Assembly: GCF_009765685.1 (NCBI RefSeq)
Contig: NZ_LMUY01000103.1
Span: 97,955-161,954 of the forward strand
Reading direction: 5' to 3'
Length of the DNA: 64,000 nt
Source: Acidisphaera sp. L21
GTDB taxonomy: Bacteria; Pseudomonadota; Alphaproteobacteria; Acetobacterales; Acetobacteraceae
Below, piece after piece: positions 42,940-56,467 of this stretch (its first letter is position 1; each line of letters opens with the position of its first letter). The position numbers were made by a program, and so were the translations under genes. The notes under the pieces are model-generated. The model saw only the letters and a program-made list of their open reading frames with translations. It did not search any database and had not been told where the DNA came from.

Positions 42940-43092
42940 ATGGATATAATCCTTGTCGTCGTGCGCGCCTTTGGTCCGCACGCGATCGGCGACCGCATCA
43001 CCACGCCTTCCGACGTCACCGCCATGCTCGCCTCCGAACACGCCGGCTGCGTCGTGGCCATTCCCCAGCCCACCCCGACGACGGAGCACTGA
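42940..43092 (+). CDS. Small phage protein upstream of the tail sheath
   Basis: A 50-residue protein (MDIILVVVRAFGPHAIGDRI...) starting at the ATG at 42940 with GGAG 6 nt upstream and ending 2 bp before the sheath gene. Its content (VVRAFGPHAIGDRITTPSDV, CVVAIP) is like small DUF-type proteins placed before sheath genes in Mu-like phages. No function known. Confidence 0.7.
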   Translation: MDIILVVVRAFGPHAIGDRITTPSDVTAMLASEHAGCVVAIPQPTPTTEH

Positions 43093-43094
43093 GC

Positions 43095-44672
43095 ATGCCG
43101 ATTGTCCAACAGGGCTCGATCAACACCACCGCACTTGTCGTGCCGGACCTTTACGTCCAGATCGTCCCGCCGCAGAACCTCGTCCTCAATGGCGTGCCGA
43201 CCAACGTTCTCGGCGTCGTCGGCACCGCGTCCTGGGGTCCCGTCAATCAGCCGGTCACCCTGGCCTCCATGGCCGACTACGCCCGTACCTTCGGCCCGGT
43301 TCTCGCCCGCAAATATGACATGGGCACCCAGGTCGCCACCGCCGTGCAGCAAGGCGCCAGCAACTTCCGCTGCGTCCGCGTCACCGACGGGACGGACATG
43401 GCCGCGACATACGCCATCTTCTATGCTGGCGGGTCATACCCCCTCGAACTCGTGGCGCGCTACACCGGCAGCCTCGGCAACAGCATCGCCGTCAACATCA
43501 CCAGCGGTTCGCAAGCCGGCACCTGGCGCCTCACCCTCGCTATCCCAGGTCTTACGCCCGAACAGTTCGACAACATAGCCGCACCCAGCCCGGCAGTGTT
43601 CTGGACCAACCTGGCCAACGCAATCAACAACGGCGCCTCGGCTCTGCGCGGTCCCAGCCAGCTTGTTGTCGCCTCACTCGGCTCCGCCACCAGCACCGCT
43701 CCACAAGCTCTCTCCAACCAAGCCCTGCTCGGCGGCACCGACGGCGCCACCAGCATCAATGCCGCGACACTGGTCGGCGTCGACACCCTGCCGCGCCGCG
43801 GCCTCTACGCCCTGCGCGGCCAGGGCTGCAGCATCGGCCTGCTGGCGGATGCGGATGATGCGGGCCAATTCTCGGTCCAGGCGGACTTTGCCCTGTCCGA
43901 AGGCGTCTACATGATCGCCACCGGCCCGTCCGGAGACACGCTGGCCACCGCCATCAGTGCGAAACAGGCCGCCGGGCTCGACAGCTACGGCGTCAAGCTG
44001 ATGTTCGGTGATTGGCTCTACTGGAATGACCAGACCAACGCCTCGATCCGCCTCGTATCCCCGCAGGGCTTCACCGCCGGCCGGCTCGCGAACCTCTCGC
44101 CGGAGCAATCCAGCCTCAACAAGCAGCTTTACGGCGTCATCGGCAGCCAGAAATCCGGCACGCCCGGCTCCGGCCAAACCACCAGCTACAGCAGTGCCGA
44201 ACTTGCGCAATTGTTGGGTAACGGCATCGACGTCATCGCCAACCCGCAACCTGCAGGCACATTTTGGGGCGTGCGCGGTGGCCACAACTCCAGCTCCAAC
44301 GCTGCAACGAACGGCGACAACTACACGCGCATGACCAACTACATCGCCAGCACGCTTGCCGCCGGCATGGGCCAATTCGTCGGCCAGGTCATCAACGCCA
44401 CCCTGTTCCGCCGCATCCGAGCCACCCAGCTTTCCTTCCTGCAGAACCTACTCTCCCAGGGTATCCTCGGCAGCACCGACGGATCCCTCCCCTTCGGCGT
44501 CGTCTGCGACACTTCCAATAACCCCAACAGCCGCACCAGCCTCGGCTACGTCCAGTCCGACGCCCAGATCCAATACCAGGCGATCAACGAGAAGTTCATC
44601 GTCAACATGGAGGGCGGCCAGACCGTCCAGGTCACCCGCCAGACCCTGCCGTCCGGGCAGATCAGCAGCTAA
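43095..44672 (+). CDS. Phage tail sheath protein
   Basis: The contractile outer tail tube, 525 residues. Typical start (VPDLYVQIVPPQNLVLNGVPTNVLGVVGTASWGPVNQPVTL), YDMGTQVATAVQQGASNFRCVRV, a hydrophobic core, and a C-terminal region RRIRATQLSFLQNLLSQGILGSTDGSLPFGVVCDTSNN. Diagnostic of a contractile tail; with sheath, tube and gpV-J genes it assigns the element to the myovirus-like type. Confidence 0.93.
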   Translation: MPIVQQGSINTTALVVPDLYVQIVPPQNLVLNGVPTNVLGVVGTASWGPVNQPVTLASMADYARTFGPVLARKYDMGTQVATAVQQGASNFRCVRVTDGTDMAATYAIFYAGGSYPLELVARYTGSLGNSIAVNITSGSQAGTWRLTLAIPGLTPEQFDNIAAPSPAVFWTNLANAINNGASALRGPSQLVVASLGSATSTAPQALSNQALLGGTDGATSINAATLVGVDTLPRRGLYALRGQGCSIGLLADADDAGQFSVQADFALSEGVYMIATGPSGDTLATAISAKQAAGLDSYGVKLMFGDWLYWNDQTNASIRLVSPQGFTAGRLANLSPEQSSLNKQLYGVIGSQKSGTPGSGQTTSYSSAELAQLLGNGIDVIANPQPAGTFWGVRGGHNSSSNAATNGDNYTRMTNYIASTLAAGMGQFVGQVINATLFRRIRATQLSFLQNLLSQGILGSTDGSLPFGVVCDTSNNPNSRTSLGYVQSDAQIQYQAINEKFIVNMEGGQTVQVTRQTLPSGQISS

Positions 44673-44684
44673 GGAGCAGCCTCA

Positions 44685-45113
44685 GTGCCCACCAACGCCT
44701 TTACTCTCGGCCGCGACTGCCAACTCGTCGTCATCGGCCCTCAGGGTCGTGTCGACCTCACTCACGTCACCGGCTTCGACAGCCGCCAGATGACCCAGCC
44801 CATCCGCATCGACCGGCTGGACGGCACGCAACTCGCCGCCGAACTGCCGAAAGGCTGGGAGGGCAGCTTCGAACTCGAGCGCGGCAACAGTGTCGCCGAT
44901 GACTTCATCGCCACCACCGAGCAGGCCTATTTCACCAATGGCCAGCTCACCGCCAGCACCTTGTACCAGTATGTGAGCGAAGCCGACAGTAGCACCAGCA
45001 CCTATCAATACGATGGCGCCGTCTTCAAACTATCAGCCGCCGGCGCCTGGCGCGGTGACGCTGCCGTGAAGCAGAAATTGGAATTCTTCGCCACTCGCCG
45101 CCGCCGGGTCTAA
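44685..45113 (+). CDS. Phage tail tube protein
   Basis: A 142-residue protein immediately after the sheath, starting at GTG 44685 with AAGGAG upstream. The pattern (FTLGRDCQLVVIGPQGRVDLTHVTGFDSRQMT, GWEGSFELERGNSVADDFIATTEQAYF, LYQYVSEADSSTSTYQYDGAVFKL) matches tube proteins that form the inner channel. The order sheath-tube-chaperone is standard. Confidence 0.85.
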   Translation: MPTNAFTLGRDCQLVVIGPQGRVDLTHVTGFDSRQMTQPIRIDRLDGTQLAAELPKGWEGSFELERGNSVADDFIATTEQAYFTNGQLTASTLYQYVSEADSSTSTYQYDGAVFKLSAAGAWRGDAAVKQKLEFFATRRRRV

Positions 45114-45161
45114 CCCAAGCCCCGCCTTCCTCATTCGAGAAAGTCGATCCGGGAGCCAACG

Positions 45162-45673
45162 ATGCAAACCCCTACACAATCCTACGTCGCCGCCGCCCAA
45201 GACATCCGCACCATCACCGACGCGGTGGGTCGCACACTCACAATCCGTCGCCCCACCACCCTGGACCGCCTGCACCTGTTCAAGGCGGCCGGCCCAATCC
45301 TCTCCGGCAACGACCGCTATCTCGGCCTAGCCATGCTCGCCTTCACCGTCATCGCCATCGACGGCGTCCCAATGCCGCGCCCAACCAGCGAACCCCAGAT
45401 CGATGCCGCCGTCGATCGCCTCGGCGATGACGGCATAAACGCGATCGCCGCTTGCCTCGACCCCACGGACACCGAAGGCCTGGCCGTCGCCACCGCGGGA
45501 AACTGAGCGAGCACCCCGATCTTGTGGACAGCCTATACCTGGTCCGCAACGGGGTGCCCTTCGACGTTGCGTTTTCCCTGAGCCGCGAAGATCGCCTCGC
45601 CTGGGTCGTCGTCCTCGGTCGCCTCGACACCGGCCGCGCTTTCGACTGGGCAACCCACACATGGTCGGAGTGA
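45162..45673 (+). CDS. Tail assembly chaperone pair with -1 programmed frameshift
   Basis: The zero-frame product (45162-45506) has 114 residues. A -1 slip on G GGA AAC at 45497-45503 joins it to an overlapping frame (stop 45671-45673) and gives about 170 residues. This is the gpG/gpGT arrangement of many tailed phages, where the short form and the fused form act at a set ratio as chaperones of the tape-measure protein. The slippery heptamer is directly before the UGA, and a stem-loop starts 7 nt after it. The frame-two segment (LSEHPDLVDSLYLVRNGVPFDVAFSL) has no start signal of its own. Confidence 0.88.
45497..45503 (+). promoter_or_regulatory. -1 frameshift slippery heptamer
   Basis: G GGA AAC in the zero frame, with TGA as the next codon. 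It fits the X XXY YYZ rule (tandem slippage of the GGA and AAC codons to GGG and AAA), as in lambda G/GT (GGGAAAG). After slippage the frame reads GGG AAA CTG AGC. Confidence 0.88.
45511..45557 (+). promoter_or_regulatory. Predicted frameshift-stimulating stem-loop
   Basis: GCACCCCG (45511-45518) pairs perfectly with CGGGGTGC (45550-45557) around a 31-nt loop. It begins 7 nt after the slippery site, within the usual 5-9 nt spacing. A tertiary or pseudoknot contact is possible but not resolved by eye. Confidence 0.7.
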
Positions 45674-45680
45674 TGTTCCG

Positions 45681-46049
45681 ATGACTCCCGCCCAAGCCGC
45701 TGCAGCCCTATCGGATCTTCCGATTACGGACACCCTGGCCACGGTCCTCGCTGCCCAGTCCAACCGTCTGGCCGAGGCCGTGCGCGCCAACCTCGCCACT
45801 CCACCCGGCGGTCCGCACGACCGTCCCTGGCGTCAATCTGGGCAACTCCAGGCCAGCATCGCCGCCAGCACCGACGGCCTTGCCGCGCAAATCGGCTCCA
45901 ACGATCCGGCGGCCGCGCCACAGGAACTCGGCACCGCCACCATCCCACCCCGCCCATTCCTCGCCCCCGCCGCCACCGCCCTGGCAGAGCCGATTGCGCG
46001 CGAGATCGGCCGGGTCCTCGTAGACCTGCTGATACATCGCCTGAAATAG
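45681..46049 (+). CDS. Phage virion morphogenesis/gp10-like protein
   Basis: A 122-residue protein between the chaperone and the tape-measure position. Its pattern (GGPHDRPWRQSGQLQASIAASTDGLAAQIGSNDPAAAPQELGTATIPPRPFLAPAATALAEPIAREIGRVL) resembles HK97 gp10-like and virion-morphogenesis proteins, which contain SG-x-L-...-Y-A-...-E-x-G-T-...-P-P-R-P-F-L-A/x-A motifs. Likely a tail-completion or minor tail factor. Confidence 0.7.
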   Translation: MTPAQAAAALSDLPITDTLATVLAAQSNRLAEAVRANLATPPGGPHDRPWRQSGQLQASIAASTDGLAAQIGSNDPAAAPQELGTATIPPRPFLAPAATALAEPIAREIGRVLVDLLIHRLK

Positions 46050-46076
46050 GCCAGACCTAACTCAGAGGCACCGCCC

Positions 46077-47198
46077 ATGCTAGAAGCCTACGAGATCGGC
46101 ATCTCCCTTGCCCTCCAGGATGGCGTCAGCGACGGCATCGCCCTCATCCGCCGCGACCTATCGGCGCTGGACCGCGCAATCGCCGCAACATCCCAGCACC
46201 TGGCCCAACTCCGGACCCAATCCGCCGCAACCGGCATCACCCGGCCGCCACTACCCGCCATCGCCGGACCGGCCACCCAGTCGGCACCCCCCGCCACCGA
46301 TGCCGCTGAACTACCCGCCCGGCCGACGCCACCCGCTGCGACGACTTCAACATCATTCATCGCACCGGCCGTAATCCCGACACAGCCGATTGCAACGCCT
46401 GCACCAGTTTCGCCTTCGGCACCGCTTGCCAAGGCACCCAGCCAACCACTCCCGCCGCGAGCGCAGGCGGCGCTGCAAACACCTTCACAGCGGCCGTCCG
46501 GTTCCCTCCAACCGCCTCAGCAAAGTCGCCCAGGCGCAGCGGTTGCAGCCCCTTCAGCCGCCGGATCGGTGGCCGTAGCCCGCGATACCGCTCCCATCCT
46601 CTCGCAATCCGCCGCTGCACCAACCAACACGAGAGACGCCGCACCGCCGCAAGCCGCAGCACTGTCCTCCAGCCCCACCATCCCGGCCCGCGCTGCCGCT
46701 TCGGTCACCAGAACGGCCACCACGATCAGATCCGCGGCGTTCACCCAAGCGCTCCCCGCGCAGGCATCGCCACCTTCGAGGCCTCAGCAACCTGCCACCA
46801 AGCCAATTGCGGCCCGGGCGGCACCACCCGCGTCATCACAGATCCAACCAGTGCCAATGCGTCAGCGGGCCGTCCTTACTGCGCCGTCGATCACCAACAT
46901 TGGCAGCCCCCCTTCTTTCACCGCCCCGCAATCTCCGCCACCCGGCGCGCCGACCTACCAACCGCCCTCCGCGCGCCCGGCCGCATCTCCCCAGCAGCCG
47001 GCCGCCGCGTCCTTTGCCCCACCGCCGCAGCAGGCCGCCCCCATCACCCTGCAGGGCGACATCGTCCTCGACGGCGCCCGCGTCGGGCGGTGGATGACCA
47101 GCAGCCTCGCCCGCCAGGCCTCCCGCCCCGCCGCCGGCCCAACCGGTCCCGACCCCCGCCAGACCCCCCTATGGTCCGGCCAAGCACAAGGCTTCTGA
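46077..47198 (+). CDS. Short Pro/Ala-rich protein in tape-measure position
   Basis: A 373-residue protein. The first 45 residues are helical (YEIGISLALQDGVSDGIALIRRDLSALDRAIAATSQHLAQLR) and the last 45 are conserved-looking (GDIVLDGARVGRWMTSSLARQASRPAAGPTGPDPRQTPLWSG); between them lie about 270 residues of Pro/Ala/Ser/Gln-rich low-complexity sequence. The position and ends fit a tail tape-measure protein, but length is well below the usual 600-1500 residues and it lacks the hydrophobic and lytic regions. Either a very short tail, a degenerate gene or a different protein. Confidence 0.6.
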   Translation: MLEAYEIGISLALQDGVSDGIALIRRDLSALDRAIAATSQHLAQLRTQSAATGITRPPLPAIAGPATQSAPPATDAAELPARPTPPAATTSTSFIAPAVIPTQPIATPAPVSPSAPLAKAPSQPLPPRAQAALQTPSQRPSGSLQPPQQSRPGAAVAAPSAAGSVAVARDTAPILSQSAAAPTNTRDAAPPQAAALSSSPTIPARAAASVTRTATTIRSAAFTQALPAQASPPSRPQQPATKPIAARAAPPASSQIQPVPMRQRAVLTAPSITNIGSPPSFTAPQSPPPGAPTYQPPSARPAASPQQPAAASFAPPPQQAAPITLQGDIVLDGARVGRWMTSSLARQASRPAAGPTGPDPRQTPLWSGQAQGF

Positions 47199-47879
47199 AT
47201 GTCCGATTTTAGTCTGACCCTCGGCCCAGTCGCTTTCGCCGGATTCGAGCTTCCCAGTTCCATCACCCTTGGCGGCCACCAACGCTTGGCCATCCACCGC
47301 TTACCCGGCGGCCTACGCATCATCGACGCCCTCGGTCCCGACCCGGCGGATATTGCCTTTTCTGGCATCTTTACCGGCCCCGACGCCGCCGATCGCGCCC
47401 GCCTGCTCGACACCCTCCGCGTCGCCGGGGCCGCCCTCCCACTTTCTTGGGACGCCTTCTTCTACACAGTCATCATTGAGACGCTGGAGGCGGACTATCG
47501 CAGTCCCTGGTGGATTCCCTATCGCCTTTCCTGCACCGTCCTACGGGACGAAGCGGCCGCGCTCGTCACCTCGGCCATCCAACTCACACCCGCCATCAGC
47601 GCCGACCTGCTAGCCGCCGGCTCCTTCGCCACCGCCGCCTCTGTCGCTATCGGTACGCCGGGCGCCACCACCGCAGGCACCGCGGCCTATGCCGCTGCTC
47701 AAACCACGCTCGCTACCACGCTCACTGGAATCGACGGCCAACTCGCCGCCGCTGAACCGGGCCTGCAATCGTCAGACCTACCCTCCGCCACCGCCTCGGC
47801 GGGCCTGCTTGCACAGCTCAGCAACGCGCGGGCCTACACCGCTCGCGCGGCCCGCAATCTGTCTACCGCCAGCACCTGA
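47199..47879 (+). CDS. Tail protein gpU-like
   Basis: A 226-residue protein. The first 105 residues resemble P2-type gpU (SITLGGHQRLAIHRLPGGLRIIDALGPDPADIAFSGIFTGPDAADRARLLDTLRVAGAALPLSWDAFFYTVII...), a tail terminator/assembly factor that precedes gpX. The second half is an Ala/Thr-rich helical extension not found in P2 gpU. The ATG abuts the previous stop. Confidence 0.75.
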   Translation: MSDFSLTLGPVAFAGFELPSSITLGGHQRLAIHRLPGGLRIIDALGPDPADIAFSGIFTGPDAADRARLLDTLRVAGAALPLSWDAFFYTVIIETLEADYRSPWWIPYRLSCTVLRDEAAALVTSAIQLTPAISADLLAAGSFATAASVAIGTPGATTAGTAAYAAAQTTLATTLTGIDGQLAAAEPGLQSSDLPSATASAGLLAQLSNARAYTARAARNLSTAST

Positions 47880-48064
47880 TGGGGAACCTTACCGTCGCAG
47901 GTGGAAATCTTTTCCGCATCGCCGCCGAACAGCTTGGTGACGCCACACAATGGATCCGCATTGCGGAGTTGAACGCGCTGTCCGACCCGGTCCTGACCGG
48001 GCTCACAGTGCTCAGGCTTCCCAATCCGGATCCCACCGCCGGGGGCGGCATTGCCCGACAATAG
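47879..48064 (+). CDS. Tail protein gpX (LysM-like)
   Basis: A 61-residue protein: LTVAGGNLFRIAAEQLGDATQWIRIAELNALSDPVLTGLTVLRLPNPD. This is the LysM-like fold of P2 gpX and similar proteins that connect tail baseplate hub to the tube. TGATG overlap at the start, and its 3' end overlaps the gpD gene by 14 bp. Confidence 0.85.
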   Translation: MGNLTVAGGNLFRIAAEQLGDATQWIRIAELNALSDPVLTGLTVLRLPNPDPTAGGGIARQ

Positions 48065-49082
48065 TCTTCGCACCCCCAGCATCACCGCCCTTTCGGACGG
48101 GGCCGAACTGCCGAACCTCATCGACGGCGACATCTTCGACAACGCTCACTTCGCCGCAGCACGCTTTCGTCTCCGCTTTGCACTCTCCCCCACCGATGCG
48201 GAAACCCTTTTCCAACCCGGCGCCGTCATCGAAATCCAATCAACCCTCGGCGGCGCTCCCACAAGCTTGCTCCAGGGCGAGACCGATACAATCACTTGCG
48301 ACGTCCTGAACGGCATCGTCGACGTCGAGGGCCGCGACCTCACCGCTCGCCTGCTAGACGCCCGGACTCAAGAAACCTTCAGCAACCAAACCGCCAGCGA
48401 GATCGCCACCACCCTCGCCGGCCGCCATAGCCTCACCCCCGATATTACCGCCACCTCCACACTCGCTGGCCGCTACTACGCCACGGAGCACGACCGCATC
48501 ACACTCGGCCAGTTCTCGCGCGCCACAACGGAATGGGATCTCCTCACCTTCCTCGCTGCCCGCGAAGGCTTCGAGGTATTTGTCACCGGCCAAACCCTAA
48601 CCTTCGCCCCGCCCCCTGACACGCCGGCGGTGCTCACCCTCTCCCCCGATCTCTGCATCAGCCTCCAGCTCGAACACGCCCTCACCCTCGCCCGCGATAT
48701 CGAGGTCACGGTCAAGTCCTGGAACAGCCGCCAGCAAAATGCCTTCACCCAAACCGCCCGCAGCGCCGCCAGAGGCAAGCGCAGCGGTCCGGTCCAGCGC
48801 ATCGTCGTCGTCCGACCCAATCTCGCCCCAGATGACGCAGCCCAGCTAGCAAAACGCATCCTCACCGATCTCTCGGCGCACGAGCGCAACGTACATGCCG
48901 AACTCCCCGGCGAACTATCGCTGACGCCCCGTAGTCAAATCTTACTCACCGGCACCGGCACCGATTTCGACCAGATCTACTACGTCGCCGAACTCGACCG
49001 GCATTTCAGCGCTGCACACGGCTTTACCGAGCGGCTGCACCTTAAGAACATTCCCTCCAACGCCTCGATCGACACGTCATAG
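48051..49082 (+). CDS. Late control D / baseplate hub protein
   Basis: A 343-residue hub protein of the gpD (P2)/gp27 type. It begins at TTG 48051 and shows the expected segments: GDIFDNAHFAAARFRLRFALSPTDAETLF, DVEGRDLTARLLDARTQETFSNQTASEIATTLAGRHSL, WDLLTFLAAREGFEVFVTGQTLTF, and LTLARDIEVTVKSWNSRQQNAFT. It trimerises around the spike at the tip of the tail tube. Confidence 0.88.
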   Translation: MPDNSLRTPSITALSDGAELPNLIDGDIFDNAHFAAARFRLRFALSPTDAETLFQPGAVIEIQSTLGGAPTSLLQGETDTITCDVLNGIVDVEGRDLTARLLDARTQETFSNQTASEIATTLAGRHSLTPDITATSTLAGRYYATEHDRITLGQFSRATTEWDLLTFLAAREGFEVFVTGQTLTFAPPPDTPAVLTLSPDLCISLQLEHALTLARDIEVTVKSWNSRQQNAFTQTARSAARGKRSGPVQRIVVVRPNLAPDDAAQLAKRILTDLSAHERNVHAELPGELSLTPRSQILLTGTGTDFDQIYYVAELDRHFSAAHGFTERLHLKNIPSNASIDTS

Positions 49083-49092
49083 GAGCCAGGGT

Positions 49093-49632
49093 TTGGATCG
49101 TTTGCTCAACGCGCTGAAAGCCCAGGGCGCCAATCAGGACCAGGCAGCCGGTGTACCACGCTTCGGCACCGTCACCTCCGTCGACCCCACCACCGCCACC
49201 GCCCGCGTCACCCTCCAGCCGGAGGGCGTGCTCACCGGCTGGCTCCCCTTGCTCACACCCTGGGTCGGTAATGGCTGGGGCCTAGTCTGCCCGCCCTCAC
49301 CCGGCGACCAGGTGCTCGTTTTCCCGCAAGAGGGCGATGCCGAACACGGTCTCATCCTCGGCGCCAGTTGGTCGGCCAAAACCACCCCACCTGCAGCCCC
49401 CTGCGGTGAATTCTGGCTAGTCCATAAATCCGGCAGCTTCCTCAAACTGCAGAATGACGGAACCGTGCAGATCAAGGCGGACGTCTACGTCACCGGCACC
49501 GTCCAGGTCACCGGCGACGTTCGTGCCGCGGGTGACGTCTATGACAGCCACGGCGCACTCAGCGCCCTGCGCGCCCACTATAACGCGCACCTTCATCCGC
49601 CAATCCCTTCCACCACCAGCATGCCGGATTGA
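49093..49632 (+). CDS. Baseplate spike protein gpV
   Basis: The membrane-piercing spike, 179 residues. It has the OB-like domain GTVTSVDPTTATARVTLQPEGVLTGWLPLLTPWVG and GDQVLVFPQEGDAEHGLILGASWS, then a beta-helix with QIKADVYVTGTVQVTGDVRAAGDV, and a tip with NAHLHPP. The HxH close to the C-terminus matches iron-binding tips of P2-like spikes. Start is TTG 49093 with AGGAG upstream. Confidence 0.9.
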   Translation: MDRLLNALKAQGANQDQAAGVPRFGTVTSVDPTTATARVTLQPEGVLTGWLPLLTPWVGNGWGLVCPPSPGDQVLVFPQEGDAEHGLILGASWSAKTTPPAAPCGEFWLVHKSGSFLKLQNDGTVQIKADVYVTGTVQVTGDVRAAGDVYDSHGALSALRAHYNAHLHPPIPSTTSMPD

Positions 49633-49656
49633 TTGATCGCGACTTAGGAAGTACCC

Positions 49657-50019
49657 ATGCCCGACCTATCTCAACTCTGGGGCAATGATCTAGCCTGGTC
49701 TCCCACCGGCGACCTCGCCACCGCCGACATCCCTTCTGTCACGCAACAGCGCGTCCTGCGCCGCCTGCTCACGAGCACCGGCGAATACCTATGGGCACTG
49801 GATTACGGCGCAGGTCTCGCCTCATTCGTCGGCCAACCCGGCGCCGCCGCCGCCATTCGTGCCGCCATTCGCGGGCAGATCTTCAAAGAGGCCGCCGTCG
49901 CACAAACCCCCGAACCGATCATCGACCTGGTGCCGGACCCGGCCGGCGCGATCTATGTCCACATTCGCTACGCCGACGCAACCACCGGCGGCACTCAGAC
50001 GATCGCCTTCGTCACCTGA
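49657..50019 (+). CDS. Baseplate wedge protein gpW (gp25-like)
   Basis: A 120-residue gp25/lysozyme-like (fold) wedge component: DLATADIPSVTQQRVLRRLLTSTGEYLWALDYGAGLASFVGQPGAAAAIRAAIRGQIFKEAAV. The R-R-L-L-T...-G-E-Y-...-Y-G-x-G-L pattern is diagnostic for the gpW/gp25 family. Follows the spike by 24 bp. Confidence 0.9.
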   Translation: MPDLSQLWGNDLAWSPTGDLATADIPSVTQQRVLRRLLTSTGEYLWALDYGAGLASFVGQPGAAAAIRAAIRGQIFKEAAVAQTPEPIIDLVPDPAGAIYVHIRYADATTGGTQTIAFVT

Positions 50020-50046
50020 CGCCAACCGCTTGCGCATAGGTCAAAC

Positions 50047-51165
50047 ATGCAGCTTGAACTTCAGGACTTTACAACGCTGGTGCGCAATATGGCCGCTGGC
50101 GTCCAGGGCAGCGCACGCGTGCTCGTCGACCTCACCACCGGCAGTGTTCTCCGCGCGATTCTGGAGGCGAATGCCTCGCTTGCTCTATGGCTGCAATGGC
50201 TCATCGTGCAGGTGTTGGCCGCAACCCGCGCGGCAACTTCCAATGGCGCCGATCTCGACACCTGGGTTGCCGATTTCGGCCTTGCTCGCCTACCCGGCCA
50301 GGCCGCAGCCACGACGCTCGTCTTCTCTCGAATCACGCCGGGCTTCCCCGCAACCATCCCCGTCGGCGCACAGGTTAAAACCGGCGACAATACCGTCACC
50401 TTCACCGTCCTGGCCGACCCGGCCAACCCCGACTTCTCCGCCACGACGAACAGCTACGCCGTCGTCCCATCCGTCACCGCCATCGCCATCTCGGCCGCCG
50501 CTACAACATCCGGCGTCATCGGCAACGTCCAGGCGGGTGCAATTTCCCTCCTCGCCTCTGCCATGCCGGGTATCGACGCTGTCACCAACCCCGCCGCGGC
50601 TGCCGGCGGTCTTGATGCCGAGCCCGACGCCGCCCTACGCGTCCGCTTTGGCAACTTCATCGATAGCCGCTCGCGTGCAACTCCGCGCGCCATCGCCTTT
50701 GCAATCCAATCACTGCAACAGGGCATCGGCTTCGTCCTGGCTGAAAACACCGATCCGTCCGGCGCCACCCGCCCGGGTTTCTTTACCGTAACCATTGATG
50801 ACGGATCTGGCTCGCCACCGTCGACGTTGATTGCACTAGTCGCCGCCGCGATCGACGCAGTGCGCCCCGTCGGCACACAATTCGCCATCCAGCCGCCCCA
50901 GCCAATCGCCGCCAATGTTTCCATCACCATCACGACGCCAACGGTGAACCATGCCGCTGCCCAGTTGGCCGTATCCAACGCCATCACCAACTACATCTCG
51001 ACCCTGCCAATCGGTGTACCACTCCGCACCTCCCGCCTCGCCGCTCTCGCCTACGCCGCAGACCCTTCGATAAGCAACGTCTCCCTCCTCACCATCAACG
51101 GCGGTAACGATCTCGTTCCGTCAGCCACTGGCGTTGTAAAGCCTGGAACGATTGCGGTGAACTGA
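50047..51165 (+). CDS. Baseplate wedge protein gpJ
   Basis: A 372-residue gpJ (gp6-like) wedge protein. It shows the AAATSNGADLDTWVADFGLARLPGQAAATTLVFSR segment, the beta-domain G-AQVKTGDNTVTF, DAEPDAALRVRFGNFIDSRSRATPRAIAFAIQSL and a C-terminal AVRPVGTQFAI and VSITIT repeat. All features fit the family. One base separates it from gpI. Confidence 0.92.
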   Translation: MQLELQDFTTLVRNMAAGVQGSARVLVDLTTGSVLRAILEANASLALWLQWLIVQVLAATRAATSNGADLDTWVADFGLARLPGQAAATTLVFSRITPGFPATIPVGAQVKTGDNTVTFTVLADPANPDFSATTNSYAVVPSVTAIAISAAATTSGVIGNVQAGAISLLASAMPGIDAVTNPAAAAGGLDAEPDAALRVRFGNFIDSRSRATPRAIAFAIQSLQQGIGFVLAENTDPSGATRPGFFTVTIDDGSGSPPSTLIALVAAAIDAVRPVGTQFAIQPPQPIAANVSITITTPTVNHAAAQLAVSNAITNYISTLPIGVPLRTSRLAALAYAADPSISNVSLLTINGGNDLVPSATGVVKPGTIAVN

Positions 51166-51166
51166 C

Positions 51167-51808
51167 ATGACTGGTGACGCACCCGACTTCATTACCCGCA
51201 TCAAATCCGCTCTCCCAACCCGGTGGTTCCCCGACGACACCCCCGTGCTGGACAGCGTCCTATCCGGACTCGCCATCGCATGGTCGGCGCTGTACGCCCT
51301 GCTCGCATACGTCCGTCTACAGAGCCGCATCGCAACCGCCACCACGTCTTTCCTCGAGGGCGCAAGCACGGACTTCTTCGCCGACCGCCTTCCCCGCCGT
51401 ATCGGTGAGTCCGACGACAGCTTCCGCGTCCGTCTGCAACAGGCACTCAGGCGCGAACACGCCACCCGCTTCGCGCTGCTCTCCACTCTGCAGGACCTCA
51501 CGGGACATATTCCCATCATCTTCGAGCCATCGCGCATCACCGACACCGGCGCCTATGCAACAGCCTCGATGGGTTACGCAGTGGCCGGGGCCTGGGGCAG
51601 CCTCGAATTGCCGTTCCAGGTCTTCGTCACCGCCCGGCGTCCCCAGGGCGTTGGCATCGCCAATATCGCGGGGTATGCCACCGGCGGCCCCCTCGCCCGC
51701 GCCAGCCTCGCGCAGATTAGCGGCCAGGTCACCGACGCAGACATTGCCGCCGCCGTCACCGCCGTGATGCCAACGGCATCCACCGCGTGGCTTCGGATCA
51801 CCAACTGA
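51167..51808 (+). CDS. Tail protein gpI-like
   Basis: A 213-residue protein in the P2 gpI/Mu gp48 position. Pattern: LPTRWFPDDTPVLDSVLSGLAIAWSALYALLAYVRLQSRIATATTSFLEGASTDFFADRLPRRIGESDDSFRVRLQQALRREHATR, typical for the wedge-fibre connector. The C-terminal third is beta-rich and differs from P2. Confidence 0.85.
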   Translation: MTGDAPDFITRIKSALPTRWFPDDTPVLDSVLSGLAIAWSALYALLAYVRLQSRIATATTSFLEGASTDFFADRLPRRIGESDDSFRVRLQQALRREHATRFALLSTLQDLTGHIPIIFEPSRITDTGAYATASMGYAVAGAWGSLELPFQVFVTARRPQGVGIANIAGYATGGPLARASLAQISGQVTDADIAAAVTAVMPTASTAWLRITN

Positions 51809-51820
51809 GGAAACCCCTAC

Positions 51821-53050
51821 GTGGATCGCCAGATAGTCTACCCGGGAAGCATCCCGCTCGACACCGACCTCTTGTCCATTCAACGCAACACCATGGTTGC
51901 ACTCGGCTACCTGACCCAGGCGACGCTCGGCGCATCGACCTTCGTCGACGGGCTGGAGTGTTTCGCCACGACGCCCGCAAGCCTCACCATCGTGCTCAAC
52001 CCCGGCAGCATCGGGTCGTTCGGTGCCATTGATGCGGCGGCCTTTGGCTCCCTACCAGCCGACAATGTTGAGCCGCTCGTGCGGATGGGAGTTTCAACCA
52101 ACCTGACCAACCTGACCCTGACCGCACCAGCCACGTCGGGCCAGTCCATCAACTACCTCATCCAGGCTAGCTTCAGCGAAACCGACACAACGGCAATCGT
52201 CCTTCCCTACTACAATGCCGCCAACCCCGCTCTTCCGTTCAGCGGCCCCGGGAACAGCGGGATCGCCGAAAACACCCAACGCATCCAACGCGTGCAGTTT
52301 CAGGTCAAACCGTCCGCCCCGGCCAACGCTGGCTCGCAGGTGACGCCGCCCGTCGATGCAGGTTGGAGCGGGCTCTACGTCGTCACGGTCAATTACGGCC
52401 AAACCCAAATCACCTCCTCCAGCATCGCGACCTATCCCGGCGCACCTTTCATTGCGTTCAAGCTCAGCGGCCTCACTCCCGGCTTCTCCCGCATGGCGAC
52501 CTTCACCGCGTCGGGCAACTTCGTCGTCCCGAATGGCAGCACGTCTGTCAGAGTTCGGCTCTGCGGCGGCGGCGGTGGTGGCGCGTCCGGTCAAGGTGGC
52601 GCCGGCGGTGGTGCCGGCGGCTATGCGGAGGGCATTGTCCAAGTCACCCCGGGCCAGGTCATTCCGATCACGGTCGCCGGCGGCGGAGCAGCGGGAAACG
52701 TCGCCGCAGCCACAGCAGGTGGCACCAGCAACTTCGGCAGCGCCATGTCCGCCACTGGCGGCTCTGGCGGCGGCAACGCTCAATCCTTCGCCTCGGGCGG
52801 CGCTCCCGGTGCGGGCTTCGGTGGCTCTCTGAACCTACGCGGCGGCTATGGCTCCGACGGGAACGCAGGAACGGTCATGTTCGCCGGCAATGGCGGCGTC
52901 TCCTATTTCGGTGGCGGCGGCCGCGCCGCATCCACCGGTAGTGCCACCGAACAAATAGCGCTCGCCCCCGGCTCCGGCGGCGGCGCCGCTTACAGCGTCA
53001 GCGGCGCGGGCGGCCCCGGCGCACCCGGCGTCGTCATCGTGGAGTTCTAG
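51821..53050 (+). CDS. Tail fibre with glycine-rich C-terminus
   Basis: A 409-residue protein starting at GTG 51821 with GAGGAAA upstream. The N-terminal 220 residues form a baseplate-attachment domain (IVYPGSIPLDTDLLSIQRNTMVALGYLTQATLG). From about residue 240 it becomes Gly-rich (LCGGGGGGASGQGGAGGGAGGYAEGIVQVTPGQVIPITVAGGGAAG and further GG runs), resembling the polyglycine-II fold of receptor-binding adhesins such as phage S16 gp38. A host-recognition role is inferred. Confidence 0.78.
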   Translation: MDRQIVYPGSIPLDTDLLSIQRNTMVALGYLTQATLGASTFVDGLECFATTPASLTIVLNPGSIGSFGAIDAAAFGSLPADNVEPLVRMGVSTNLTNLTLTAPATSGQSINYLIQASFSETDTTAIVLPYYNAANPALPFSGPGNSGIAENTQRIQRVQFQVKPSAPANAGSQVTPPVDAGWSGLYVVTVNYGQTQITSSSIATYPGAPFIAFKLSGLTPGFSRMATFTASGNFVVPNGSTSVRVRLCGGGGGGASGQGGAGGGAGGYAEGIVQVTPGQVIPITVAGGGAAGNVAAATAGGTSNFGSAMSATGGSGGGNAQSFASGGAPGAGFGGSLNLRGGYGSDGNAGTVMFAGNGGVSYFGGGGRAASTGSATEQIALAPGSGGGAAYSVSGAGGPGAPGVVIVEF

Positions 53051-53540: not shown

Positions 53541-54026
53541 ATGACCACGACTGCCACCCATGTCTGGCGGCCGAGCGCCGCGCGCAGCATTACCCTGGAC
53601 GCTTTCGTCCCGGTCCCGCGCGGAACGGCCGCCCAAGCGCCCGCCTTACTCTCCTGGCCGCTGAAGGACCCGAGCGACCTGCTGGACTACCAGTTCGACA
53701 TCGCACCGGCGCTTATCGGCAACGACGGCGATGCAATTTCCACCCTCGACATCACCATCAACCCGTCAGCAACCGGTGACCTGGCGCTGTCATCCGCCGC
53801 CGCCGATGGCAGCCGCGCCGTGTTATGGCTGGCCGGCGGTCAACCCGGTGTCACCTATACTGTCACGCTGAAGATCGGCACCCAGGCAGGCCGCACCATA
53901 GCGCGCTCCGTCTATCTTCCCGTGGCCACTCTAGCAGCCCAGCCCGCCAACGACGGTACAATAGTGACCGACACTGGCGAGCGCCTGGTTGATCAGAACG
54001 GCAATCCGATCATGGCAGGCTCCTGA
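53541..54026 (+). CDS. Phage fibre-tail adaptor protein
   Basis: A 161-residue protein. The pattern WPLKDPSDLLDYQFDIAPALIGNDGDAISTLDITINPSATGDL and AVLWLAGGQPGVTYTVTLKIGTQAGRTIARSVYLPV matches adaptor proteins that link tailspike to baseplate in alpha- and betaproteobacterial phages. TAAGGA precedes the ATG. It shares a TGATG overlap with the tailspike gene. Confidence 0.7.
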   Translation: MTTTATHVWRPSAARSITLDAFVPVPRGTAAQAPALLSWPLKDPSDLLDYQFDIAPALIGNDGDAISTLDITINPSATGDLALSSAAADGSRAVLWLAGGQPGVTYTVTLKIGTQAGRTIARSVYLPVATLAAQPANDGTIVTDTGERLVDQNGNPIMAGS

Positions 54027-56467
54027 TGCCGACAGTCGACCAACTCGCACCAGCACCGGCCGCTGCGGACACCGACGAATTGCTTGCTTCCCAGTCTGGC
54101 GTTCTGCGGCGCGTCACTCGCGCTCAGTTACTCGCGGGCACGCAGTCGCAGATCACGCTTCCAACAGCAAATTTGCTGGGCCGTACGTCCAGCGGCTCCG
54201 GCTTGCCGGAACCAATCACGATCGGTGGCGGGCTCACACTCGCCAACGGCAGCCTATCCATGACGCCGGCTGCCGCTTTAAACCTTGCAAGCCTTGACGC
54301 ATCATCCGCCCTTGTAACGCCAGCCGGTGGAACCACCCCGCGCAGCCTTGCCGACCTTTTCGCAGCAGCCGTCTCACCCGAATCCTTCGGCGCGATCGGT
54401 GACGGCGTCACCGACGACACAGCTTCCCTCGCTGCTGCCGTCGCTACGTTGCGGCCCATTCTGCTTGGCCCGCGCACCTACGCCGTCAGCGGGCAATGGA
54501 CGATCCCGGTTGCCGCGATACTACTTGGCGCACCCGGCCAAACCCGGCTCCGGCGCAAAGCCCAAGCCACCGGCGGTGCCTGGATCGCTATCCAGGGGCC
54601 GAGCTTTCGCGCCCACGGCATCATCTTCGACGCCAATAGCCCCGCCATACCTGGTGAAAACTGGGCCGTCCTCGTTGCCCCCACGTGTCTACGCACCGAG
54701 TTTCACAACTGCGTTTTCACCAATGCGGGTGGTCCCAGCCTCGGCAACGGCCTCACCATTCTCGCCTCCGATCCTGCGACGACTGGTCATGTCATCGACT
54801 CGTGTGAGGCGATGGCAAATGCTGCCCATGGAATCTGGGTCCAGGCCGTCGACGGCGCGCGAATCACGAACAACCGCGTGCACGACAACGTCGCATACGG
54901 CATTAACGTCGATTATAACGACGCCACCTTCGTCCAGGCGGTTCGGCTTGCCCTCATCTCGGGCAATTCCTGCTGGAACAACGCACGCGGTATTGCCGTT
55001 GGCAACTTCAACGCAACCAACCGCGAACCCCCCAGCTGGGGCAACGCCAATCCAGACGCAATTGGCGCTGCCGTGGTCGATAATATCTGCCACGACAATA
55101 TCTATTACGGCATCGCCGTCTCCGGGCGTTCCCTACTGGTGCAGTCGAACCTGCTGACGGCCAATGGCAATACGGGAAATGGTGGCGCTGGCATTCTGGT
55201 CAACGCCGCCTACTCCCGCGTCGCCGACAACACGATCACCGGCAACAGCCAATTCGGGATCGATTCAGGCGGCAGCATCGTCCTGGATATCGCCGGTAAC
55301 CACATCACCGGAGCCGCCTGCGGCATCAATCCTGGCGGTAGCCAGGCCGTAACGGTGCGGTCGAATGTCCTCCAGGACAATGGCTGGGGCATGCTGGTCT
55401 ACAACGTCGAAACCGACGGCGCTGGCAATAATTTCGGCCTCGCCTGCAGCAACCTGGCCATCACCGACAACACGATCGGCATTTCCTCCGGCAATGGCGG
55501 CGGCATCTGGCTGATCGACGGACCACAATCCGTTCTTGTCGCCCGCAACAACTTCTTCGGAACCTCCGATGCCAGCATCGGCCAGTGCCTCTACACCAAT
55601 ACCGACAGCGTCCTGATCGAGGGTAACCGCTGGAACAACACCCAGCGCCTATTCGCCAATCCCACCGCGGTAAACGGCCTGCAAACCATTCTTCTGCCCG
55701 ACATCGCCGATGAAGTCATGCTCAGTGCCGTACCTTCCGGCGTGCAATCCATCAAAACGATGCACCAACTGAACGTCGCCGGGCAGATCACGTTCATCAA
55801 GCCGACCGCCGGCGGCTCTGGCTACACCCACGCCGCGGTTGCAATATCCGGCACCGGCACAGGCGCCACTGCTATCGCGTACATCGCCAATGGCGCGCTC
55901 ATCGGGGTTGCAATCGTCAGTCCCGGCTCTGGCTACGGTTCGCCAGGCAGCCCCGTCGCTGTCACCATCTCGGGCGACGGAACGGGCGCAGCGGCCACCG
56001 CCTCGGTGGGTCTTTCCGTGATCGAGGGGCGGCGCGTGCGCCTCGCCTGCAATACCGCGGTCCACTTCGCCCGCGCCGGGTCCAACCCGTTCCAGGAAAA
56101 TTGGACGCTTGGCGACATCACTGTCCCGGCCAACGCCACGATCACCTTCACCGGTGTCTTCGGCGCTTGGCGGGCCGACAACGTCCCGCTGGCCGACTAC
56201 ATCGCACCGCCCGGCGACGGCAGCCTTTTACTGCGCACCCTCCATGATGCCGACCTCATCGTTCGCCCATCCACCACCGGGCACTTCCGGGTCAGCACCG
56301 ACGCCGACCCAGGCGGTTATATCGCCGCAATCGGCCACGGAAGCCCCATTGGCGTGGTCACAGCGCCGCCGGGTTCGGACTATCGCAATCTCGACGGCGG
56401 CGTCGGCCAAACCCTTTGGATCAAACGCCTCGGCGCCGACTCGCAGGGATGGTTCGCTGTCGCCTGA
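54026..56467 (+). CDS. Tailspike with right-handed beta-helix
   Basis: An 813-residue protein. Residues 1-110 are a linker/head-binding part, followed by the pectate-lyase/tailspike entry motif FGAIGDGVTDDT (121-132) and a long series of parallel-beta coils rich in N-N, N-T-I-T-G and G-N-x-I motifs (about 150-530). Residues about 593-665 hold two copies of a Gly-rich repeat (GGSGYTHAAVAISGTGTGATAIAY and PGSGYGSPGSPVAVTISGDGTGAAATA). The final part is a beta-tail. It likely binds and cuts a surface polysaccharide; no active site is certain. Confidence 0.85.
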   Translation: MPTVDQLAPAPAAADTDELLASQSGVLRRVTRAQLLAGTQSQITLPTANLLGRTSSGSGLPEPITIGGGLTLANGSLSMTPAAALNLASLDASSALVTPAGGTTPRSLADLFAAAVSPESFGAIGDGVTDDTASLAAAVATLRPILLGPRTYAVSGQWTIPVAAILLGAPGQTRLRRKAQATGGAWIAIQGPSFRAHGIIFDANSPAIPGENWAVLVAPTCLRTEFHNCVFTNAGGPSLGNGLTILASDPATTGHVIDSCEAMANAAHGIWVQAVDGARITNNRVHDNVAYGINVDYNDATFVQAVRLALISGNSCWNNARGIAVGNFNATNREPPSWGNANPDAIGAAVVDNICHDNIYYGIAVSGRSLLVQSNLLTANGNTGNGGAGILVNAAYSRVADNTITGNSQFGIDSGGSIVLDIAGNHITGAACGINPGGSQAVTVRSNVLQDNGWGMLVYNVETDGAGNNFGLACSNLAITDNTIGISSGNGGGIWLIDGPQSVLVARNNFFGTSDASIGQCLYTNTDSVLIEGNRWNNTQRLFANPTAVNGLQTILLPDIADEVMLSAVPSGVQSIKTMHQLNVAGQITFIKPTAGGSGYTHAAVAISGTGTGATAIAYIANGALIGVAIVSPGSGYGSPGSPVAVTISGDGTGAAATASVGLSVIEGRRVRLACNTAVHFARAGSNPFQENWTLGDITVPANATITFTGVFGAWRADNVPLADYIAPPGDGSLLLRTLHDADLIVRPSTTGHFRVSTDADPGGYIAAIGHGSPIGVVTAPPGSDYRNLDGGVGQTLWIKRLGADSQGWFAVA

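What the first reader, a model, noticed from the sequence alone, without database searches (positions are those of the whole stretch)
45162..45673. Canonical -1 programmed frameshift in the tail chaperone with an 8-bp stimulatory stem
The zero frame reads G GGA AAC UGA at 45497-45506, the exact X XXY YYZ slippery form next to a stop codon. The second frame is open across the junction and lacks its own start signal. A perfect stem (GCACCCCG with CGGGGTGC) begins 7 nt after the slippery site with a 31-nt loop. Slippage fuses the 114-residue product into about 170 residues, the gpG/gpGT layout of tailed phages.
Basis: partly seen in the sequence, partly recalled or inferred. Interest (0 to 1): 0.75.

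Follow-up and report, generated by a model that had tools for sequence, protein, structure and literature searches.

The report
Ribosome frameshift in phage tail gene
A prophage gene carries a conserved slippery site and RNA hairpin where some ribosomes probably slip back one base to make a longer tail-building helper protein; this trick is well known in tailed phages, and here it is traced through a large, mostly unannotated family.

Summary
Confirmed and essentially ordinary. The zero frame reads G GGA AAC TGA at 45497-45506; the -1 frame is open to 45673; the 8-bp stem (45511-45518 with 45550-45557) follows a 7-nt spacer. One sequence would prove little: GGGAAAC occurs six times in the window, as chance predicts. 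Comparison settles it. Of 212 sequences (211 loci plus the window), 209 hold both parts, all in the -1 relation, and 207 of 209 carry X_XXA_AAC/U at the junction (166 of 168 distinct): GGGAAAC, AAAAAAC, GGGAAAT or CCCAAAC. The stem is held by synonymous choice: mean folding z -3.19 against synonymous shuffles over 148 sequences, -0.07 in a control stretch. One subclade has an unrelated, covarying stem. The zero-frame product's best solved match is HK97's tail assembly chaperone, weakly. The mechanism, and these heptamers in tail chaperones, are in print. New here: the family, its swapped sites and stems, and a possible reason for the asparagine A-site codon (hosts with a tRNA-Lys-CUU). No frameshift product has been measured.

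The parts
45162..45506 (+). zero-frame ORF, 114 aa: gpG-like tail assembly chaperone
   Evidence: phrog_20383 (unknown function) E 1.6e-19; AlphaFold2 model pLDDT 86, top PDB match HK97 tail assembly chaperone, weak
45497..45503 (+). slippery heptamer G_GGA_AAC
   Evidence: X_XXA_AAC/U at the junction in 207 of 209 loci
45504..45506 (+). zero-frame stop TGA directly after the heptamer
   Evidence: the stop follows after 0 nt in 118, 18 nt in 38, 3 nt in 9 and 15 nt in 1 of 166 distinct sites
45503..45673 (+). -1 frame extension, 56 aa (gpT-like part), first codon CTG re-using base 45503
   Evidence: part found in -1 relation in all 209 loci with both parts; third codon positions of this frame differ most among 146 relatives
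45511..45518 (+). 5' arm of the stimulatory stem
   Evidence: 99.0% of cells paired in 61 hand-picked sequences
45550..45557 (+). 3' arm of the stimulatory stem
   Evidence: codons GGG 142/144 and GTG 143/144 here against 25% and 35% elsewhere in the -1 ORFs
45522..45549 (+). inner helix in the 31-nt loop (window only; not conserved)
   Evidence: the consensus fold keeps only two weak pairs here
43095..44672 (+). tail sheath, 525 aa
   Evidence: phrog_23 tail sheath E 8.9e-46
44685..45113 (+). probable tail tube protein, 142 aa
   Evidence: phrog_12993 (unknown function) E 6.6e-40; 33% identical to the phiKX1 gene in the same place; tube role inferred from position
45681..46049 (+). 122-aa gene between chaperone and tape-measure candidate (tail completion/neck type)
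   Evidence: phrog_5 E 2.8e-8
46077..47198 (+). probable short tape measure protein, 373 aa
   Evidence: position; no significant family match; best piece of its match to the phiKX1 742-aa protein is 10 N-terminal residues, E 0.022

Best explanation
A programmed -1 ribosomal frameshift in the tail assembly chaperone gene of a contractile-tailed prophage. Most ribosomes stop at TGA 45504 and make the 114-aa chaperone. When the tRNAs on GGA and AAC sit in the P and A sites, the hairpin that starts 7 nt downstream holds the mRNA at the entry tunnel; some ribosomes let both tRNAs slip to GGG and AAA and go on in the -1 frame to a 170-aa fusion. By analogy with lambda gpG/gpGT, the short form would coat the tape measure and the extra part of the fusion would recruit the tube protein. 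Shown here: the sequence elements, their phase, their conservation, synonymous constraint on the stem. Inferred: slippage itself, its rate, the protein partners.
For: All 209 loci with both parts are in the -1 relation; 207 carry X_XXA_AAC/U (GGGAAAC 148, AAAAAAC 39, GGGAAAT 10, CCCAAAC 10). A search open to any XXXYYYZ heptamer in the overlaps of 180 loci found 191 in the slippery phase, 6 and 4 in the other two. In the first 79 loci, none dropped, 66 distinct regions: the P-site codon is GGA in 62 and AAA in 4, while GGA is 89 of 721 Gly codons elsewhere in these genes. The zero-frame stop moves, the heptamer stays. Stem: 144 of 148 usable distinct sequences hold at least 6 of 9 pairs at fixed offsets; synonymous-shuffle z mean -3.19, control stretch -0.07 (n = 147). 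A second stem type in a subclade: 97.2% paired, 7 cells with changes on both sides. PhiKX1, 33% identical, has A_AAA_AAC TGA and the same stem. Best fold matches: HK97 tail assembly chaperone and YqbN.
Against: No expression data. The fold match is weak (Foldseek E 0.081; VIA Z 5.3, and the tool warns that Z under 8 may mean only a common arrangement). In 151 nt of mRNA the stem is not part of the minimum-energy fold. Two of 209 loci lack a heptamer (L144, L152). Counts come from related sequences and are not independent events; double changes in the main stem are 2 cells, both in L161; in the second stem the number of pairs with double changes (3) is reached by 33 of 500 shuffles.
Confidence: 0.95

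Rival explanations
1. Two separate genes: the -1 ORF is translated on its own by reinitiation or coupling after the TGA.
For: One relative (L144, Isosphaeraceae MAG) has no heptamer and an ATGA stop/start overlap instead. PhiKX1's record annotates the second part as its own CDS from an internal ATG. In the window a TTG lies upstream and a GTG 21 nt after the slip.
Against: 110 of 166 distinct loci have no ATG/GTG/TTG in the -1 frame from -60 to +24 around the site, and among the codons tabulated (-12 to +15) no position has a start codon in more than 32 of 166. It does not explain the fixed heptamer.
Confidence: 0.03
2. RNA polymerase slippage on a base run gives a mixed mRNA pool that is then read without ribosomal shifting.
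For: AAAAAAC sites (39 of 209) hold a run of six A.
Against: 148 sites are GGGAAAC, 10 GGGAAAT and 10 CCCAAAC, whose runs of three are short for this; the X_XXY_YYZ phase is kept.
Confidence: 0.01
3. A decayed or mis-sequenced gene: a frame error has split one ORF.
For: None beyond the split itself.
Against: The same split in 209 loci, in an alignment whose phiKX1 row is only 33% identical to the window.
Confidence: 0.005

Closest known systems
Burkholderia phage KL1 gp18/gp19 (PMC3483164, one passage seen, abstract start)
   [quoted passage not shown] a -1 shift; another tail gene between the chaperone and the tape measure
   Different: 142/264 aa against 114/170 aa; siphovirus per the abstract; homology not tested
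Caulobacter phages phiCbK (AAAAAAC) and Colossus (GGGAAAC) (PMC3556154, one passage seen, abstract start)
   Same: Tape-measure chaperone with -1 shift at the same heptamers
   Different: phiCbK is a siphophage per the abstract; homology not tested
Haloarchaeal viruses HCTV-1 (G_GGA_AAC) and HCTV-2 (A_AAA_AAC) (review PMC5009743, passages seen)
   Same: g-t type -1 frameshift at the same heptamers
   Different: Archaeal hosts; siphoviruses
Lambda G/GT (review PMC5009743, passages seen)
   Same: Short chaperone in excess, minor -1 fusion
   Different: Lambda's slippery site (GGGAAAG, recalled) has a lysine A-site codon; the 30:1 ratio is from the review, nothing was measured here
P2 E/E+E' and Smp131 (PMC3931495, passages seen)
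   Same: -1 frameshift in the tail operon of a contractile-tailed phage
   Different: T-run slippery sequence (T6G, T7G)

Membership tests
Frameshifted tail assembly chaperone genes (gpG/gpGT type) | Two overlapping ORFs in -1 relation | tested here: met
   209 of 209 loci with both parts; 3 of 212 sequences skipped
Frameshifted tail assembly chaperone genes (gpG/gpGT type) | Conserved X_XXY_YYZ slippery site in phase at the junction | tested here: met
   207 of 209 loci; phase control 191/6/4
Frameshifted tail assembly chaperone genes (gpG/gpGT type) | Downstream stimulatory RNA structure | tested here: met
   A conserved structure: synonymous-shuffle z -3.19, n = 148; pair counts. That it stimulates was not measured
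Frameshifted tail assembly chaperone genes (gpG/gpGT type) | Between major tail protein and tape measure gene | tested here: inconclusive
   Follows the sheath and the 142-aa tube candidate; one gene lies between it and the 373-aa tape-measure candidate, and neither candidate matched a family of named function
Frameshifted tail assembly chaperone genes (gpG/gpGT type) | Fold of the zero-frame product like the HK97 tail assembly chaperone | tested here: inconclusive
   Top match of the PDB search, but weak: 2ob9_A Foldseek E 0.081; 2ob9_B VIA Z 5.3, rmsd 4.3 over 94 residues
Frameshifted tail assembly chaperone genes (gpG/gpGT type) | Both products made in a fixed ratio, absent from virions, binding tape measure and tube | not testable with these tools
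   Needs experiment
P2 E/E' family | T-run slippery sequence (T6G) | tested here: not met
   The junction heptamer is X_XXA_AAC/U with X = G, A or C in 207 of 209 loci

The most novel reading that the evidence does not exclude
The A-site codon of tail-chaperone frameshift sites follows the host's lysine tRNAs. In this family the A-site codon is asparagine (AAC or AAU) at every kept junction site, while the P-site codon is free to be GGA, AAA or CCA. The host family carries a tRNA-Lys(CUU) that should pair tightly with AAG and spoil the lambda/E. coli type A_AAG site, so selection settled on double slippage by tRNA-Asn, backed by a strong hairpin that could be replaced by an unrelated one.
Probability: 0.3. 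Interest if true: 0.5.

Novelty: new member of a known kind. Interest (0 to 1): 0.25.

Why it matters
It lets annotators name a large, mostly unannotated prophage gene family (phrog_20383 and its -1 extension) and merge two 'hypothetical proteins' in a published acetic acid bacterial phage. The set of natural heptamer swaps and two unrelated stems is a ready-made series for asking what a bacterial -1 frameshift site needs in hosts with two lysine tRNAs. As a mechanism it is not new.

Tried and rejected
Pfam and NCBIfam gave no usable match for either part (NCBIfam's best, at E 0.14, is noise). Rfam had no match at E up to 1. The window's inner helix was considered as part of the signal and rejected: it is not conserved. 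A pseudoknot was not modelled; third codon positions in the loop vary more than in the stem, so nothing points to one. An upstream Shine-Dalgarno-like stimulator: 53 of 166 sites hold GGAG/GAGG/AGGA in the window at -18, but other windows of the same genes range from 20 to 72 of 166, so there is no case. Plasmid relatives of 43000-52000: no match in 'near' mode. Queuosine loss as a reason for tRNA-Asn slippage: the own genome has a TGT-family gene, but so do all 14 control genomes, so the test says little.

Limits of the counts. One search kept 79 loci of 538 relatives; one search kept 80 of 98; one search fetched 20 loci. Alignment A1 holds 11 of the fusions made; A3 (the structure input) holds the window protein and 66 of the first 70 references listed (L003, L082, L095, L098 left out). 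The 61 sequences were hand-picked for spread. The 15 leave out L201 (folds differently) and L203 (no heptamer, partial, +1 relation). One search skipped L160 (cut contig; only the second part, and I turned it the wrong way round), L163 (the window again) and L203. Searches looked for any XXXYYYZ; only for XXXAAAC/T, with a looser E limit (0.01 against 0.001), so 'always asparagine' rests; two loci (L043, L045) also hold an in-phase GGGAAAG 15 nt upstream of their GGGAAAC. The 180 loci include the window twice; the 209 include it once and some contigs fetched twice (L046 and L183, for example); the 168 distinct junctions correct for that. In one search GGG was a selection criterion, so its 1.00 for that codon is circular; use.

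Full report
Observation. The reading is exact. From ATG 45162 the zero frame ends GCG GGA AAC TGA, so G_GGA_AAC occupies 45497-45503 and the stop 45504-45506. The -1 frame is open from 45431 to the TGA at 45671-45673 and gives 56 residues after the slip, for a fusion of 170 aa. The 8-bp stem, the 7-nt spacer and the 31-nt loop are as described. The heptamer as a word is not rare: six in the window, 6.64 expected. The 67 nt after the heptamer fold at -29.2 kcal/mol, better than all 200 shuffles, but in 151 nt of context the z-score is only -1.01, the minimum-energy fold does not form the stem and the centroid keeps six of its pairs.

Conservation of the site. A fusion query found 538 relatives in IMG/VR, of which 79 loci were kept. 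Alignment A1 of 11 fusions found 98 in GTDB genomes, 80 kept, whose titles mostly name Acetobacteraceae, Rhodospirillales or unplaced Proteobacteria, five naming other phyla; it also matched 26 of 100 genomes, the own one included (20 loci fetched). Two further scans gave 21 and 10 loci, some already held, and phiKX1 came from the phage records. With profile HMMs of the two halves, 209 of 212 sequences (window included) showed both halves, all 209 in the -1 relation; 207 carry X_XXA_AAC/U: GGGAAAC 148, AAAAAAC 39, GGGAAAT 10, CCCAAAC 10. Distinct 150-nt junctions: 166 of 168. A search open to any XXXYYYZ word in the overlaps of 180 loci found 191 in slippery phase against 6 and 4 in the other phases. 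The swaps change the encoded amino acids (Gly-Asn, Lys-Asn, Pro-Asn) but keep a legal site. In the first 79 loci (66 distinct regions, none dropped) the P-site codon is GGA in 62 and AAA in 4; elsewhere in these genes GGA is 89 of 721 Gly codons. The zero-frame stop follows after 0, 18, 3 or 15 nt (118, 38, 9 and 1 of 166 distinct sites).

The two misses. L144 (Isosphaeraceae MAG) has an ATGA overlap in place of the heptamer; L152 has neither the heptamer nor a good 5' arm. I read the first as a switch to coupled translation and the second as decay; neither is tested.

The stem. In 144 of 148 usable distinct sequences at least 6 of 9 pairs stand at the same offsets. In most of them a ninth pair closes the base (131 of 144 G-C), so the spacer is 6; the window lacks that pair. 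Synonymous choice holds the arms: GGG 142 of 144 (25% elsewhere in the -1 ORFs), GTG 143 of 144 (35%), CCC 120 of 140 Pro (21%). Shuffling synonymous codons 60 times per sequence gives a mean z of -3.19 (91% below -1.64), against -0.07 (10% below -1.64, n = 147) in a control stretch further on. In 61 hand-picked sequences 99.0% of cells pair; most changes are C-G to U-G, with two double changes, both in L161. A subclade (L009/L046/L070/L092 and L183-L200, L202) has an unrelated GC-rich stem 6-7 nt after GGGAAAC/T or CCCAAAC: in 13 distinct sequences 97.2% of cells pair, seven cells have changes on both sides (0 of 500 shuffles), sliding controls pair 34-52%; the count of pairs with double changes alone (3) is reached by 33 of 500 shuffles. 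So the stem was replaced while the slippery site stayed. The sequences are related, and the second stem was named after seeing its alignment, so these counts lean towards it.

What the gene is. Upstream lie a sheath (phrog_23) and a 142-aa probable tube; downstream a tail-completion type gene, a 373-aa probable tape measure and baseplate genes; terminase, portal and head genes precede. The zero-frame part matches phrog_20383, of unknown function. An AlphaFold2 model (67 sequences, pLDDT 86) has as best solved match HK97's tail assembly chaperone (2ob9_A, Foldseek E 0.081; 2ob9_B, VIA Z 5.3 over 94 residues at 4.3 A) and then YqbN, 3klu (Z 4.9). That YqbN belongs with phage tail chaperones is recalled. 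The match is weak, but it heads the list of all chains searched and fits the gene's place.

Mechanism. Tandem -1 slippage by the tRNAs on GGA and AAC, aided by the hairpin. The own genome has tRNA-Asn(GUU), tRNA-Lys(UUU) and tRNA-Lys(CUU); a CUU-type pattern is in 56 of 60 genomes of its family, 53 of the 54 good ones (only the own genome's was confirmed by ARAGORN). The review PMC5009743 (passages) says that E. coli's A_AAG site is shifty because its sole tRNA-Lys pairs weakly, that of two lysine tRNAs one is expected to pair tightly with AAG (said of Thermus), and that E. coli tRNA-Asn promotes only double slippage. The family's strict use of AAC/AAU fits that, but the link is an inference from one host family.

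Known or new. The same heptamers in tail chaperones are in print: Burkholderia KL1 (GGGAAAC right before TGA, with an intervening tail gene; PMC3483164, passage), Caulobacter phiCbK and Colossus (PMC3556154, passage), HCTV-1 and -2 (PMC5009743, passages). Contractile-tailed P2-like phages use T runs (PMC3931495, passages). For acetic acid bacterial phages I found no mention: the main text of the phiKX1 paper has no 'frameshift' or 'slippery' (PMC8566455, word searches and passages only; supplements not seen), its record splits the gene, and a search for papers holding 'tail assembly chaperone', 'frameshift' and 'Acetobacter' together gave none in this library. Verdict: new member of a known kind.

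Noticed in passing
L144, end of the zero-frame ORF: In an Isosphaeraceae MAG the heptamer is gone and the second part can begin with an ATG overlapping the stop (ATGA): a possible natural switch from frameshifting to coupled translation.
   Followed up: no
L082 3986-4527 (LC644975, Komagataeibacter phage phiKX1): The published record lists two hypothetical proteins where A_AAA_AAC TGA and the conserved stem indicate one frameshifted gene.
   Followed up: yes
window 46077-47198: Very short tape-measure candidate (373 aa). An N-terminal motif search found such ORFs in 23 of 168 distinct loci: 22 of 288-406 aa and phiKX1's of 742 aa. At about 1.5 A per residue (recalled) 373 aa predict a tail near 56 nm; 742 aa predict about 111 nm against 98.9 nm reported for particles of the phiKX1 host strain (PMC8566455, table passage).
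   Followed up: partly
L119, L145, L144, L154, L159: Relatives lie in the complete Limnoglobus roseus chromosome (two copies) and in records labelled Isosphaeraceae, Solirubrobacterales and Acidimicrobiales, so the family may cross phyla; labels of binned genomes may be wrong.
   Followed up: no
L190-L197, L199, L200: A subclade uses C_CCA_AAC with a GC-rich stem of about 11 pairs unrelated to the main one.
   Followed up: yes
window 54026-56467: 813-aa protein whose best match is a tail-spike family (phrog_7458, E 1.6e-8); a candidate receptor-binding protein of the prophage.
   Followed up: no
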